Of a DNA stretch of 64,000 nucleotides, positions 37,653-44,539 are shown in pieces (positions within the stretch are counted from its first letter, which is position 1; the number at the start of each line of letters is the position of its first letter). The notes beneath the pieces were generated by a model, which ran no database searches, was not told where the DNA came from, and saw only the letters and a list, made by a program, of their open reading frames with translations. Position numbers and translations under genes: made by a program. This stretch comes from Leisingera sp. ANG1 (lineage in GTDB: Bacteria; Pseudomonadota; Alphaproteobacteria; Rhodobacterales; Rhodobacteraceae): contig NZ_AFCF02000008.1 of NCBI RefSeq assembly GCF_000203975.2, positions 642,983 through 706,982 on the forward strand, given 5' to 3'.

Positions 37653-38702
37653 CTAGCCGTAGAAACGCCGCAACCCCTGCACCATCTGCGCCAGCGCGGC
37701 GTCATCCACATTCTTATGCAGCACCATGCGGATGGCACCGGAATTGCCGCCGCCGATCACCAAGCCCTCTGCCGCCAGGTGCATCCGCAGATCATCGTTG
37801 CGTCCGTCACCCGGCGTGAAGAACACCATGTTTGTGGCCTGGGACACGTCACCCGCGCCCAGGCCCCGCAGCACTCCGGCCAGTTCCGCCGCCCGCGCGT
37901 GATCCTCCGCCAGCCGTCCCGCGTTGTGCTCCAGCGCGTAAAGCCCGGCCGCCGCCAGCACGCCCGCCTGCCGCATGCCGCCGCCCAGCATCTTGCGCCA
38001 GCGCCGCGCCTTGGCGATCAGATCCGCTGGCCCGACCAACACTGATCCTGCAGGCGTGCCCAATCCCTTGGACAGGCAGACCGACACCGTATCCGCCAGC
38101 CCGGCCAGATCTGTTTCCGAACACCCCAGCGCGGTGACCGCGTTGAAGAACCGCGCCCCGTCCAGATGCACCGACAACCCGGCAGCCCGGCCCGCCTCTG
38201 CCGCCGCGGCCATATCCGCCAGCGGCACCGCCAGCCCGTTATGGGTGTTCTCCAGCGACAACAGGCGGCTGATGGGCAGGTGCGGATCATCCTCCTTCAC
38301 CGCAGCCCGGATCTCTGCCGGGTCCAGCGCCCCGTCCGCGCGCACCGGCAGAGGGCATAGCGCAATGCCGCCCAGCACCGAGGCGCCCGCCGCCTCATAG
38401 GCGTTCACATGATAACCCCTGCCGCAGATCACTTCCTCGCCGCGCTGGCAATGCGCCAGCATGGCAGTAAAATTGCTCATCGTGCCAGTAGGAAGGAAAA
38501 GGCCGGCCGCCTTGCCCAGACGCTCGGCCAGCGCAGCCTCCAGGCGGTTCACCGAAGGGTCCTCGCCAAAGACGTCATCGCCCAGTTCCGCCGCAGCCAT
38601 CGCCCGCAGCATGCCCGCATCGGGCCGCGTCACCGTATCGCTGCGCAGATCGCACAGGGGTGCATCGCCCCCTGCCCCCGCCAGCCCTGTGTATTGGCTC
38701 AT
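37653..38702 (-). CDS. Low-specificity threonine aldolase-like PLP enzyme
   Basis: A 349-residue fold-type I PLP enzyme of the L-threonine/beta-hydroxy-amino-acid aldolase family: SDTVTRPDAGML at the start, ENTHNGLAVPL near 151, VHLDGARFFNA near 178 and the PLP Lys212 in SVCLSKGLGTPAGS. His98 (GRGYHVNAYEAAG) matches the catalytic histidine. Such enzymes split beta-hydroxy-alpha-amino acids into glycine and an aldehyde. Its start overlaps the stop of the upstream dioxygenase gene by 4 nt, so the two are translated together and probably act in sequence. It could act mainly on a substrate other than threonine. Confidence 0.87.
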   Translation of the reverse strand: MSQYTGLAGAGGDAPLCDLRSDTVTRPDAGMLRAMAAAELGDDVFGEDPSVNRLEAALAERLGKAAGLFLPTGTMSNFTAMLAHCQRGEEVICGRGYHVNAYEAAGASVLGGIALCPLPVRADGALDPAEIRAAVKEDDPHLPISRLLSLENTHNGLAVPLADMAAAAEAGRAAGLSVHLDGARFFNAVTALGCSETDLAGLADTVSVCLSKGLGTPAGSVLVGPADLIAKARRWRKMLGGGMRQAGVLAAAGLYALEHNAGRLAEDHARAAELAGVLRGLGAGDVSQATNMVFFTPGDGRNDDLRMHLAAEGLVIGGGNSGAIRMVLHKNVDDAALAQMVQGLRRFYG

Positions 38703-39376
38703 TCTGTCACCTGCTCATAAGCCAGCGCCGCCACGATGTGGACGCGCCGGGTTTCGCCTCCGTTCAATGCGGTGTGGTAGCCGCGGGTGTCAGTGAAATA
38801 GACCGAACCGTCCGCTGGCAAGTGGGTGACGTGATGATTGACGATGAACAGGGAACCGGGGTTTGTGACAACCGGGATATGCAGCCGCGGCTCCGGGTCG
38901 CGGTGCCAGGAGTTGCAGTTATAAAGGCCCTTGGACAGCACCCGCGTGCGCCCGATCGGAAAGCGTTTGGCCAGCTCGGCATGCACATGCTCGAAATAGG
39001 TGCCGGCGAACTTCGGATTGAACTCAGAAAAATCCACCTCCGGCACCAGATCCTCGCGCGGCTCCTCGACATAGCGGTCGTCGGCGCGCAGCCAGTAACG
39101 GCCCGACAGGTCGTTGGCGGTCCACTCCGTCTGCCCGGGTCTCTGGGTCAGCGGCAGCGCGGCAAACCCCTGGTCTTGCATGCCGCCCATGAAGTCCTCG
39201 CGGCGCAGGCATTCCTCCAGCGCCTCTTGCAGCAGCTGGATGTCGAATGTCAGCTCCAGCCGCTGGATGCCCGGCCCCGGCACAAACTCCGCCACAGAGG
39301 CGGAGTCGGGCATGGTTTGCATGGCCCGGGCCACGGCCCCGGCATCAGCGTCGTTGATTTGCGGAACAAATGTCAT
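38699..39376 (-). CDS. Asp/Asn beta-hydroxylase-like 2-oxoglutarate dioxygenase
   Basis: A 225-residue soluble protein. Its C-terminal half matches the aspartyl/asparaginyl beta-hydroxylase family (cupin-fold Fe(II)/2-oxoglutarate oxygenases): WHRD (His158, Asp160), RLHIPVVTN, the distal His201 in DTRGYHTALNGG and Arg211 for 2-oxoglutarate in RRVHIV. Small bacterial members hydroxylate free amino acids or acylated amino acids. No membrane anchor is present. It is the first gene of a two-gene operon with the aldolase and is divergent from a LysR gene. Substrate unknown; beta-hydroxylation is inferred from its partner. Confidence 0.78.
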   Translation of the reverse strand: MTFVPQINDADAGAVARAMQTMPDSASVAEFVPGPGIQRLELTFDIQLLQEALEECLRREDFMGGMQDQGFAALPLTQRPGQTEWTANDLSGRYWLRADDRYVEEPREDLVPEVDFSEFNPKFAGTYFEHVHAELAKRFPIGRTRVLSKGLYNCNSWHRDPEPRLHIPVVTNPGSLFIVNHHVTHLPADGSVYFTDTRGYHTALNGGETRRVHIVAALAYEQVTE

Positions 39377-39469
39377 GCCGCGCGCTCCCAAATTTCGTGC
39401 TGTACGTGAGTGGTGATGCATTCGGCGCCATCGTTGCAGGCAGATACGTCTGAATAAAGCCGGGCTTTC

Positions 39470-39494
39470 GCAAATAGTATTGCAAAAAATGCAA
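39470..39494. promoter_or_regulatory. Candidate tandem LysR operator
   Basis: Two overlapping dyads: GCAA-ATAGTA-TTGC (39470-39483) and TTGCA-AAAAA-TGCAA (39480-39494), the latter a T-N11-A type LysR box inside a 15-bp palindrome. They sit 19 bp before the LysR ATG and 94 bp before the dioxygenase start, in the shared divergent promoter. Confidence 0.55.
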
Positions 39495-39513
39495 CAAGTG
39501 GCAGGGTACCCCC

Positions 39514-40401
39514 ATGCGCCGCAAGATCCCGCCCATCTCCGCCCTCTTGTGTTTCGAGGCCGCCGCCCGCTCCGGCAGCTTTGCCCAGGGCGCCCGCGCA
39601 ATGAACCTGTCGCAAAGCGCCTTCAGCCGCCAGATCCAGGGGCTGGAGGCACAGACCGGCCAGACCCTGTTCAAGCGCGAACGCCAGCGGGTGCAGCTGA
39701 CCGGTGCGGGCGAAATGCTGCTGCAGGAGCTGGCGCCGCAGCTGGAGGCGCTGGAGGCCACGTTTTACCGGCTGCGCACCCGCGACAACCCCTATGGCGC
39801 GCTCAACATCGGCACCTACCCGACACTGGGCAGCCGCTGGCTGATGCCGCATCTGGCGCGGCTGGCGCAGGATCAGCCGCGGCTGACGGTCAACACCATC
39901 ACCTATCTGGACAATGCCCAGGTGGATGCCAGCCTGGTGGACCTGGCCATCGTGCAGGGTGATCCGCCCTGGCCGGGTTTCCGCGCCGACCTCCTGATGC
40001 CGGAAACCCTGGTGGCAGTGGCGGCGCCCGGCCTGCTGGAGGCACCACTGCAGGACGCCGCCCGGCTGCTGGATCATCCGGCACTGCAGCACACCACCCG
40101 CCCGCTCAGCTGGCAGATCTGGTTTGAGGATCTGGGCGAGGCGCTGCCCGCCCGCCCCGCCGGACCGCTGTTCAGCCAATTCGAAATGCTGATCGACGCG
40201 GTGAAGTACGGCCACGGCGTGGCGATCCTGCCGGAGCTGCTGGTCCGCCGCGAGCTGGCCGAAGGAACGCTGATCCTGGCCCACCCCCACCGCTGCACGC
40301 CTGCCAGTGCCTATTACCTGCTGACGCCGCAGGCCAAGGCCGGGACCAGCCGGATCGAACGGGTCCGGGCCTGGCTGCTGGAACAGGCGCCTTCCGGCTA
40401 G
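39514..40401 (+). CDS. LysR-family regulator of the dioxygenase-aldolase pair (GcvA-like)
   Basis: A 295-residue LysR protein: N-terminal helix-turn-helix (ISALLCFEAAARSGSFAQ, LSQSAFSRQIQGLE) and an effector domain from about 92. It is divergent from the dioxygenase gene with 137 bp between starts, containing a palindromic candidate operator. Divergent LysR genes usually activate their neighbour in response to the pathway substrate, so its ligand may be the amino acid processed by the pair. Confidence 0.88.
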   Translation: MRRKIPPISALLCFEAAARSGSFAQGARAMNLSQSAFSRQIQGLEAQTGQTLFKRERQRVQLTGAGEMLLQELAPQLEALEATFYRLRTRDNPYGALNIGTYPTLGSRWLMPHLARLAQDQPRLTVNTITYLDNAQVDASLVDLAIVQGDPPWPGFRADLLMPETLVAVAAPGLLEAPLQDAARLLDHPALQHTTRPLSWQIWFEDLGEALPARPAGPLFSQFEMLIDAVKYGHGVAILPELLVRRELAEGTLILAHPHRCTPASAYYLLTPQAKAGTSRIERVRAWLLEQAPSG

Positions 40402-43891: not shown

Positions 43892-44539
43892 ATGCGCAAG
43901 TTGTTCACAGGTGTTTTTGCGGCCCTTCTTGCCTTGCTGCCCGCCCTTGCCGCGGCAGACGGCGAAACTGCGGGCGACTTCGACTATTACGTGCTGTCGC
44001 TCAGCTGGTCGCCGAACTGGTGTGCGCTGGAAGGTGATGCACGCAATGCGGACCAGTGTGACGCCCGCCATGACTACGGCTGGACCCTGCATGGCCTCTG
44101 GCCGCAATACCACCGCGGCTGGCCCAGCTACTGCCGCACCGCAGAGGCGCCGCCCAGCCGTGCAATGAGCCGGGACATGGCCGGCATCATGGGCAGCGCC
44201 GGCCTCGCCTGGCACCAGTGGAAAAAACACGGCACTTGCTCTGGCCTCAGCGCGCGGGACTATTACACAGCCATGCGCGAAGCCTACGGGCGCATCACCC
44301 GCCCCGCAGCCTTCCGCAGGCTTGAGAAGCCCGTGACCCTGCCCGCCTCTGTCGTTGAACAGGCGTTCCTGCAGGAAAACCCGGACCTGACGCGCGACAG
44401 CCTGACCATCACCTGCCGCGACGGCGCCATCCAGGAGGCCCGCATCTGCCTGTCCAAGGCACTGGAGCCGGTGCCCTGCGGGCGGGACGTGATCAAGGAC
44501 TGCACGCTGAAGAACGCCCGCTTTGCTCCTATGCGCTGA
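43892..44539 (+). CDS. Secreted ribonuclease T2-family protein with Glu-to-Gln active-site change
   Basis: A 215-residue protein with a signal peptide (LFTGVFAALLALLPALAAA). The two T2 active-site segments are present: HGLWPQY near 69 and HQWKKHGTCSGL near 110. In the family the second reads H-E-W/F-x-K-H, with Glu assisting catalysis; here Glu is Gln (codon CAG), while the histidines and lysine are kept. Such a change lowers activity in studied T2 enzymes, so this may be a slow RNase or a binding protein. Six cysteines fit disulphide formation in the periplasm. Start set by GAAAGAGG. Confidence 0.88.
   Translation: MRKLFTGVFAALLALLPALAAADGETAGDFDYYVLSLSWSPNWCALEGDARNADQCDARHDYGWTLHGLWPQYHRGWPSYCRTAEAPPSRAMSRDMAGIMGSAGLAWHQWKKHGTCSGLSARDYYTAMREAYGRITRPAAFRRLEKPVTLPASVVEQAFLQENPDLTRDSLTITCRDGAIQEARICLSKALEPVPCGRDVIKDCTLKNARFAPMR

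What the first reader, a model, noticed from the sequence alone, without database searches (positions are those of the whole stretch)
37653..40401. Unassigned hydroxylase-aldolase-LysR unit: possible new amino-acid cleavage or biosynthesis pathway
Seen: an Asp/Asn-hydroxylase-type 2-oxoglutarate dioxygenase gene (all metal and 2-oxoglutarate residues present) overlaps a threonine-aldolase-type gene by 4 nt; both are divergent from a GcvA-like LysR with a 25-bp dyad (39470-39494) in the shared promoter. Known: this aldolase family splits beta-hydroxy-alpha-amino acids to glycine plus an aldehyde, and small members of the dioxygenase family hydroxylate free amino acids. Inference: the pair beta-hydroxylates an amino acid and cleaves it, logically similar to the first two steps of carnitine synthesis from trimethyllysine but with a different oxygenase family. 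It could also run toward a beta-hydroxy amino acid product.
Basis: partly seen in the sequence, partly recalled or inferred. Interest (0 to 1): 0.72.

Follow-up and report, generated by a model that had tools for sequence, protein, structure and literature searches.

The report
Hydroxylase-aldolase pair for splitting amino acids
Marine bacteria carry a two-gene unit that probably adds oxygen to a free amino acid and then cuts it into glycine and an aldehyde; the two genes often stay together across quite different bacteria, but which amino acid is cut is still unknown.

Summary
In a Leisingera-like Rhodobacteraceae genome, a 225-residue 2-oxoglutarate/Fe(II) oxygenase gene (DIOX) overlaps an L-threonine-aldolase-type gene (ALD) by ATGA, divergent from a GcvA-like LysR. 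The '25-bp dyad' is two overlapping inverted repeats; its TTGCA-N5-TGCAA part is conserved in close relatives.

In 295 Rhodobacteraceae genomes, all 8 with DIOX also have ALD (33 of 295 overall). DIOX's closest folds are Cpz10 (beta-hydroxylase of an amino-acid moiety) and free L-proline cis-4-hydroxylase; weaker matches include protein hydroxylases.

Best reading: beta-hydroxylation, then retro-aldol cleavage to glycine plus an aldehyde, catabolic. A MmgE/PrpD protein of unknown role is the most enriched further partner. Some loci also hold betaine-demethylation-type genes or a betaine-aldehyde-dehydrogenase-like gene, hinting at a trimethylammonium amino acid (trimethyllysine is one candidate). 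A supporting test for trimethyllysine collapsed: the apparent gamma-butyrobetaine dioxygenase examined is TmpA. The substrate is not established. The pathway logic is known; I found no description of it with this oxygenase family in the papers searched.

The parts
38699..39376 (-). DIOX: 225-aa 2-oxoglutarate/Fe(II) oxygenase, Cpz10-like
   Evidence: H158, D160, H201, R211 invariant in 49 sequences
37653..38702 (-). ALD: 349-aa PLP-dependent L-threonine-aldolase-type enzyme; PLP lysine read as K212
   Evidence: K212, H98 and R325 conserved in 47 of 47 linked copies, window included
38699..38702 (-). ATGA overlap (ALD start, DIOX stop)
   Evidence: the same ATGA in 40 of 80 related loci
39514..40401 (+). 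LysR-family regulator, GcvA-like
   Evidence: a LysR of at least 49% identity lies in 33 of 80 loci (counted)
39480..39494 (.). TTGCA-N5-TGCAA inverted repeat, candidate LysR site
39470..39483 (.). GCAA-N6-TTGC inverted repeat overlapping the former
   Evidence: Read; its conservation was not tested

Best explanation
DIOX uses O2 and 2-oxoglutarate to hydroxylate the beta-carbon of a free alpha-amino acid. ALD, translated from the same message, cleaves the 3-hydroxy product by retro-aldol into glycine and the aldehyde of the remaining side chain. The GcvA-like LysR probably controls the unit from the conserved TTGCA-N5-TGCAA site. The role is most likely catabolic: in relatives the pair is joined by ABC transporters of amino-acid or peptide type, by a MmgE/PrpD-family protein, and in a few by an aldehyde dehydrogenase that could oxidise the aldehyde. 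My guess for the substrate class is an amino acid with a methylated (trimethylammonium) side chain, for example N6-trimethyllysine. Shown: gene structure, family and active-site residues, conserved pairing, co-occurrence, enriched neighbours. Inferred: reaction order, beta position, catabolic direction. Conjecture: substrate class.
For: Adjacency in 46 of 80 loci, 40 with ATGA. All 8 DIOX genomes among 295 have ALD, against 25 of 287 without DIOX (Fisher 1e-8, relatedness not corrected). Of 21 DIOX genomes without linked ALD, 16 have an aldolase match of 264 residues or more at 46-58% identity elsewhere. Linked aldolases lie in several parts of the aldolase tree (at least 7 label changes forced). 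Best folds Cpz10 (8e-14) and L-proline cis-4-hydroxylase (7e-8); Cpz10 beta-hydroxylates an amino-acid moiety. Complete active-site residues in both enzymes. MmgE/PrpD in 28 of 80 loci; 19 of 41 against 0.42 expected. Substrate hint: MTTB and/or dimethylglycine-dehydrogenase-like genes near DIOX in 10 of 80 loci, GbcA/GbcB-like genes in L047, GbdR-like regulators in L045 and L088.
Against: 29 of 80 loci lack a linked ALD although 3 kb or more follow; of 21 such genomes searched, one has no aldolase match and four only distant, split or fragmentary ones (draft genomes). ALD occurs without DIOX in 25 of 287 genomes. No aldolase column marks the linked copies. The MmgE/PrpD protein has no place in the scheme. 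The aldehyde dehydrogenase is in only 5 of 80 loci, below every equivalog cut-off shown, and is also near aldolases of genomes without DIOX (L151, L155, L160). The betaine-type genes are all below equivalog cut-offs, MTTB genes are common (307 in 41 genomes), and DIOX-free PrpD relatives also sit beside them (L176, L178). The window has no such neighbour. No biochemical data.
Confidence: 0.5

Rival explanations
1. DIOX and ALD are linked but not sequential: ALD is a plain low-specificity L-threonine aldolase supplying glycine, and DIOX makes a hydroxylated product used by another enzyme, for example the MmgE/PrpD protein.
For: ALD passes the plain L-threonine aldolase cut-off; no specificity signature; 29 loci have DIOX without linked ALD, and in L059, L063, L068, L069 and L076 DIOX is followed directly by PrpD.
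Against: Tight overlap in 41 of 80 loci and 8 of 8 co-occurrence; linkage to aldolases of several branches.
Confidence: 0.25
2. DIOX hydroxylates a protein or peptide residue, as AspH does, and the aldolase neighbour is incidental or scavenges glycine.
For: Weak Asp_Arg_Hydrox match; AspH, a bacterial prolyl-4-hydroxylase and AlkB appear among weaker fold matches (3e-5 to 2e-4).
Against: The two best folds act on small amino-acid substrates and score far better (8e-14, 7e-8). Conserved pairing and transporter neighbours.
Confidence: 0.1
3. The pair makes a beta-hydroxy amino acid for a natural product or storage compound, the aldolase working in the synthetic direction or as editor.
For: Aldolases are reversible (general knowledge); a distant relative (29%) in a Streptomyces plasmid lies beside a non-ribosomal peptide synthetase.
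Against: Recurring neighbours in the loci are transporters and oxidative enzymes; two enzymes making and destroying one product in one operon would be futile.
Confidence: 0.06

Closest known systems
Carnitine synthesis, first two steps (trimethyllysine hydroxylase, then HTML aldolase)
   Same: Beta-hydroxylation of an amino acid, then PLP cleavage to glycine plus an aldehyde; threonine aldolases have HTML aldolase side activity (passages of PMC8085414)
   Different: DIOX matches no NCBIfam model, so not the trimethyllysine dioxygenase model TIGR02410; that paper says the pathway had not been observed in prokaryotes; substrate here unknown
Guanitoxin pathway aldolase GntG with its preceding oxygenase
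   Same: ALD passes the GntG subfamily cut-off (405 against 230); GntG does a retro-aldol step (passages of PMC10367076)
   Different: That subfamily model is broad, since ALD also passes the plain threonine aldolase model; the oxygenase of that pathway (GntD) is recalled only and was not compared
Cpz10, caprazamycin beta-hydroxylase (7v4f)
   Same: Best sequence (9e-19) and fold match (8e-14); same iron and 2-oxoglutarate residues; beta-hydroxylation of an amino-acid moiety
   Different: About 30% identity; Cpz10 acts on a nucleoside-antibiotic intermediate and was described in a biosynthetic cluster; W157 and Y200 here stand where Cpz10 has V and L
L-proline cis-4-hydroxylase (4p7x) and proline 3-hydroxylase (1e5r)
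   Same: Further fold matches (7e-8 and 1e-4); free amino acid substrates
   Different: 17% and 15% identity; a hydroxyproline is a secondary amine and not an expected PLP-aldolase substrate (recalled chemistry)

Membership tests
Asp_Arg_Hydrox (PF05118) | Score above Pfam's curated cut-off | tested here: not met
   16.5 against 22.6 bits
2-oxoglutarate/Fe(II) oxygenases | HxD...H iron triad and 2-oxoglutarate arginine | tested here: met
   H158, D160, H201, R211 by alignment with Cpz10; invariant in 49 sequences
Free-amino-acid hydroxylases | Activity on a free amino acid | not testable with these tools
   Only fold similarity
L-threonine aldolase family | Curated model score and PLP lysine | tested here: met
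   369 against 312 bits; 4lnj at 8e-95; K212 in 47 of 47 linked copies
L-threonine aldolase family | Physiological cleavage of L-threonine | not testable with these tools
   No activity data
Trimethyllysine dioxygenase (TIGR02410) | Match to the family model | tested here: not met
   DIOX has no NCBIfam match at E<=1
GcvA | Score above the curated cut-off | tested here: not met
   214.7 against 288 bits: GcvA-like only
Betaine-aldehyde dehydrogenase (neighbour in a few loci) | Score above the TIGR01804 cut-off | tested here: not met
   L030 copy 416 and L131 copy 398 against 668.6 bits

The most novel reading that the evidence does not exclude
A bacterial, non-homologous counterpart of the first half of carnitine synthesis: a small Cpz10-like oxygenase beta-hydroxylates a trimethylammonium amino acid (such as N6-trimethyllysine, known from seaweeds as laminine; recalled), a threonine aldolase releases glycine and the trimethylamino-aldehyde, a betaine-aldehyde-dehydrogenase-like enzyme oxidises it, and Gbc-, MTTB- and dimethylglycine-dehydrogenase-type enzymes strip the methyl groups. 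Marine bacteria would thereby feed on methylated amino acids of algal origin.
Probability: 0.18. Interest if true: 0.85.

Novelty: new variant of a known kind. Interest (0 to 1): 0.58.

Why it matters
A conserved two-enzyme unit that turns an unidentified amino acid into glycine would be a new entry point for dissolved organic nitrogen in marine bacteria. It offers an easily expressed enzyme pair with a simple read-out (glycine plus aldehyde), and its partner genes narrow the list of substrates. If the substrate is a trimethylated amino acid, the oxygenase-aldolase logic of carnitine synthesis was invented at least twice with different oxygenases. It would also give a role to an orphan, strongly conserved oxygenase family that NCBIfam does not name.

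Tried and rejected
1. Trimethyllysine through gamma-butyrobetaine dioxygenase. TIGR02409 matched 78 of 295 Rhodobacteraceae genomes, among them 6 of the 8 with DIOX (Fisher 0.005), and 29 of 41 DIOX genomes. Withdrawn as evidence: the strong match near DIOX in L045 is TmpA (596 bits against a cut-off of 400; 413.1 against 414.75 for TIGR02409), and the best hit of the window genome lies beside a TmpB (368 against 300). Only these were checked, so the other hits are unclassified. A paralogue near DIOX in L032 (257 bits) is below the cut-offs of all three models it matched.

2. Phosphonate substrate. Kiloniella aldolases lie beside a phosphonate transporter (L133 scanned; L134 and L143 by clustering), but L093 has DIOX and ALD together at the same flanking genes without it, so I take the neighbour as incidental.

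3. Aldolase specificity. Position 102 (which I take as F87 of E. coli, recalled) is D in 26 of 47 linked copies, 7 of 16 unlinked copies in DIOX genomes and 5 of 17 copies of genomes without DIOX; no column cleanly separates the groups.

4. MTTB proximity. 8 of 41 against 1.29 expected, but four of the 8 are Kiloniella and a close relative; kept as a hint only.

5. A wider search with alignment A1 in 398 genomes of the phylum found only the window genome, so it gave no further contexts. Plasmid and phage collections gave one distant hit each.

6. Papers: 10 searches of an open-access library. 'asparaginyl beta-hydroxylase' with 'threonine aldolase', 'trimethyllysine' with 'Rhodobacteraceae', and a six-term combination gave no paper; 'trimethyllysine' with 'marine bacteria' gave two that look unrelated from the listing. 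Subscription papers are mostly not covered.

7. Fold search with the second aligner was not available; the substrate pocket was not modelled.
Full report
WHAT IS THERE. The window is G000:C19:642983-706982; the closest named DIOX is in Leisingera aquaemixtae (96% identical). ALD (37653-38702, -) and DIOX (38699-39376, -) overlap by ATGA; LysR (39514-40401, +) is divergent. By eye from the ORFs, not scanned, dnaX- and recR-type genes lie on the ALD side and a sensor-kinase-type gene beyond LysR.

THE OXYGENASE. Pfam gives a sub-threshold PF05118 match, NCBIfam nothing at E<=1. The nearest solved proteins by sequence are three Cpz10 sequences (9e-19 to 1e-17). From the Cpz10 paper (PMC9814697: outline with abstract; first part of section 8) iron is held by H115/D117/H160 and 2-oxoglutarate by R170; the equivalents H158/D160/H201/R211 are invariant in alignment A1. 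AlphaFold2 gave mean pLDDT 86.5. Foldseek ranks Cpz10 (8e-14) and L-proline cis-4-hydroxylase (7e-8) first; after a gap come a Pseudomonas prolyl-4-hydroxylase (3e-5), AlkB, proline 3-hydroxylase (1e-4) and AspH (1e-4). So the two best matches favour a small amino-acid substrate, while the weaker ones are mixed. W157 and Y200, beside the two iron-binding histidines and invariant here, are V and L in Cpz10. Mean column identity in A1 is 80%; in many loci DIOX is about 80% identical to the window while ALD is 53-62%.

THE ALDOLASE. ALD passes the cut-offs of the low-specificity L-threonine aldolase model and of the GntG subfamily and matches 4lnj at 8e-95. K212, H98 and R325 are kept in 47 of 47 linked copies, window included. 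The window genome has one other, distant homologue (30%).

CONSERVATION OF THE PAIR. The search for related loci found 203 relatives and kept the best 80 (L018-L097). ALD follows directly in 46 of 80: 40 by ATGA, L027 by GTGA, and L084, L085, L087, L093 and L097 without overlap. L082 has it more than 2 kb downstream; 29 have none although 3 kb or more follow; 4 are too short. L038, one of the 29, has a short aldolase start that runs into aldehyde-dehydrogenase-like sequence (deletion or assembly error, not resolved). By their titles, loci with adjacent ALD include Rhodobacteraceae, Neomegalonema, Rhizobiaceae, Kiloniellaceae, Rhodospirillales and two gammaproteobacteria; many are metagenome bins. 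In 295 Rhodobacteraceae genomes, 8 have DIOX and 33 have ALD at E<=1e-50; all 8 are among the 33 (Fisher 1e-8; nearly one genome per genus, relatedness not corrected). Of 21 DIOX genomes without linked ALD, 20 have some match: 16 of at least 264 residues at 46-58% identity, one split over two contigs, one in fragments, two only distant (26-28%); one has none. Aldolases of genomes without DIOX lie beside housekeeping-type genes in the cases scanned (urease accessory in L148, enolase in L149, trcR in L147). On the aldolase tree (80 rows) linked copies need 12 label changes, at least 7 forced by well-supported branches (L082 counted as linked). On the DIOX tree (79 rows) the ALD label needs 13 changes, at least 5 forced. 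A LysR of 49% identity or more is in 33 of 80 loci (counted).

OTHER PARTNERS. MmgE/PrpD-family protein: 28 of 80 loci; 19 of 41 genomes tested against 0.42 expected from the 93 PrpD genes of those genomes (not corrected for relatedness); 13 label changes, at least 6 forced. Its solved relatives (cis-aconitate decarboxylases, iminodisuccinate epimerase) are distant. In Rhodobacteraceae such proteins are common: 87 of 295 genomes at E<=1e-70, most without DIOX. A dipeptide-type ABC permease is in 16 of 80 loci; a polar-amino-acid-type ABC transporter near DIOX in L030, L039, L040, L041, L047, and its ATPase in L042. An aldehyde dehydrogenase is in 5 of 80 (L030; L039 86%, L038 52%, L035 35%, L033 34% identical to it), and beside unlinked aldolases in L131 and L132 of DIOX genomes but also in L151, L155 and L160 of genomes without DIOX. 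The two copies scanned resemble BADH most but are far below its cut-off.

THE METHYLATED-AMINE HINT. MTTB-family and/or dimethylglycine-dehydrogenase-like genes lie near DIOX in 10 of 80 loci by my label (L030, L039, L041, L045, L047, L066, L088-L090, L093); L038 and L058, with 30% dehydrogenase matches, were dropped. The label needs 6 changes on the DIOX tree, but only 2 are forced. L047 has GbcA-like (494 against 670 bits) and GbcB-like (352 against 500) genes; L045 and L088 have GbdR-like regulators (304 and 350 against 480). All are below equivalog cut-offs, and MTTB genes number 307 in the 41 genomes (8 of 41 loci against 1.29 expected). PrpD relatives without DIOX in the locus also sit beside such genes (L176, L178 of 10 contexts), so the methyl-amine link may belong to PrpD. 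The window has no such neighbour. The attempted confirmation through gamma-butyrobetaine dioxygenase failed, because the copies checked belong with TmpA/TmpB.

REGULATION. TTGCA-N5-TGCAA occurs once in 64 kb (0.12 expected) and stands at the same place in L018-L023, L025 and L027-L029, not in L024 or L026, nor in the 11 more distant divergent loci examined.

VERDICT. A real, conserved hydroxylase-aldolase unit, best read as beta-hydroxylation and retro-aldol cleavage of a free amino acid to glycine. The logic is known from carnitine synthesis (passages of PMC8085414) and guanitoxin synthesis (passages of PMC10367076) with other enzymes in front; searches showed no description of this pairing.

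Noticed in passing
L180:3887-4489 (MT647606.1, Pelagibacter phage Mosig): A phage gene annotated as Asp_Arg_Hydrox domain protein, 42% identical to DIOX residues 71-218, lies near baseplate genes, another 2OG-Fe(II) oxygenase and a phosphate transporter gene.
   Followed up: partly
L181:5965-6537 (NZ_CP108701.1, Streptomyces plasmid): A distant DIOX relative (29%) beside a non-ribosomal peptide synthetase and an ATP-grasp gene.
   Followed up: partly
L162:7078-8820 (G000:C1, outside the window): TmpA/TmpB-type genes for trimethylaminoethylphosphonate use in the window's genome; TmpB passes its cut-off, and the TmpA-type gene scores as gamma-butyrobetaine dioxygenase (425 bits), an easy misannotation.
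   Followed up: partly
L038:8675-9124: An aldolase start that runs into aldehyde-dehydrogenase-like sequence directly after DIOX: deletion or assembly error.
   Followed up: no
L045:11266-13930: After DIOX-ALD-PrpD come a short-chain dehydrogenase, a lactonase-like gene and an aminotransferase-fold gene that weakly resembles capreomycidine and enduracididine synthases, all below cut-offs.
   Followed up: no
L030 and L033: Two Leisingera strains (ANG-M1, ANG-Vp) carry a DIOX-ALD pair of another branch than the other Leisingera loci, with the genes in another setting; possible horizontal transfer.
   Followed up: no
window 43892-44539 (+): 215-aa ORF that by eye reads like a secreted ribonuclease T2-type protein (not scanned).
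   Followed up: no
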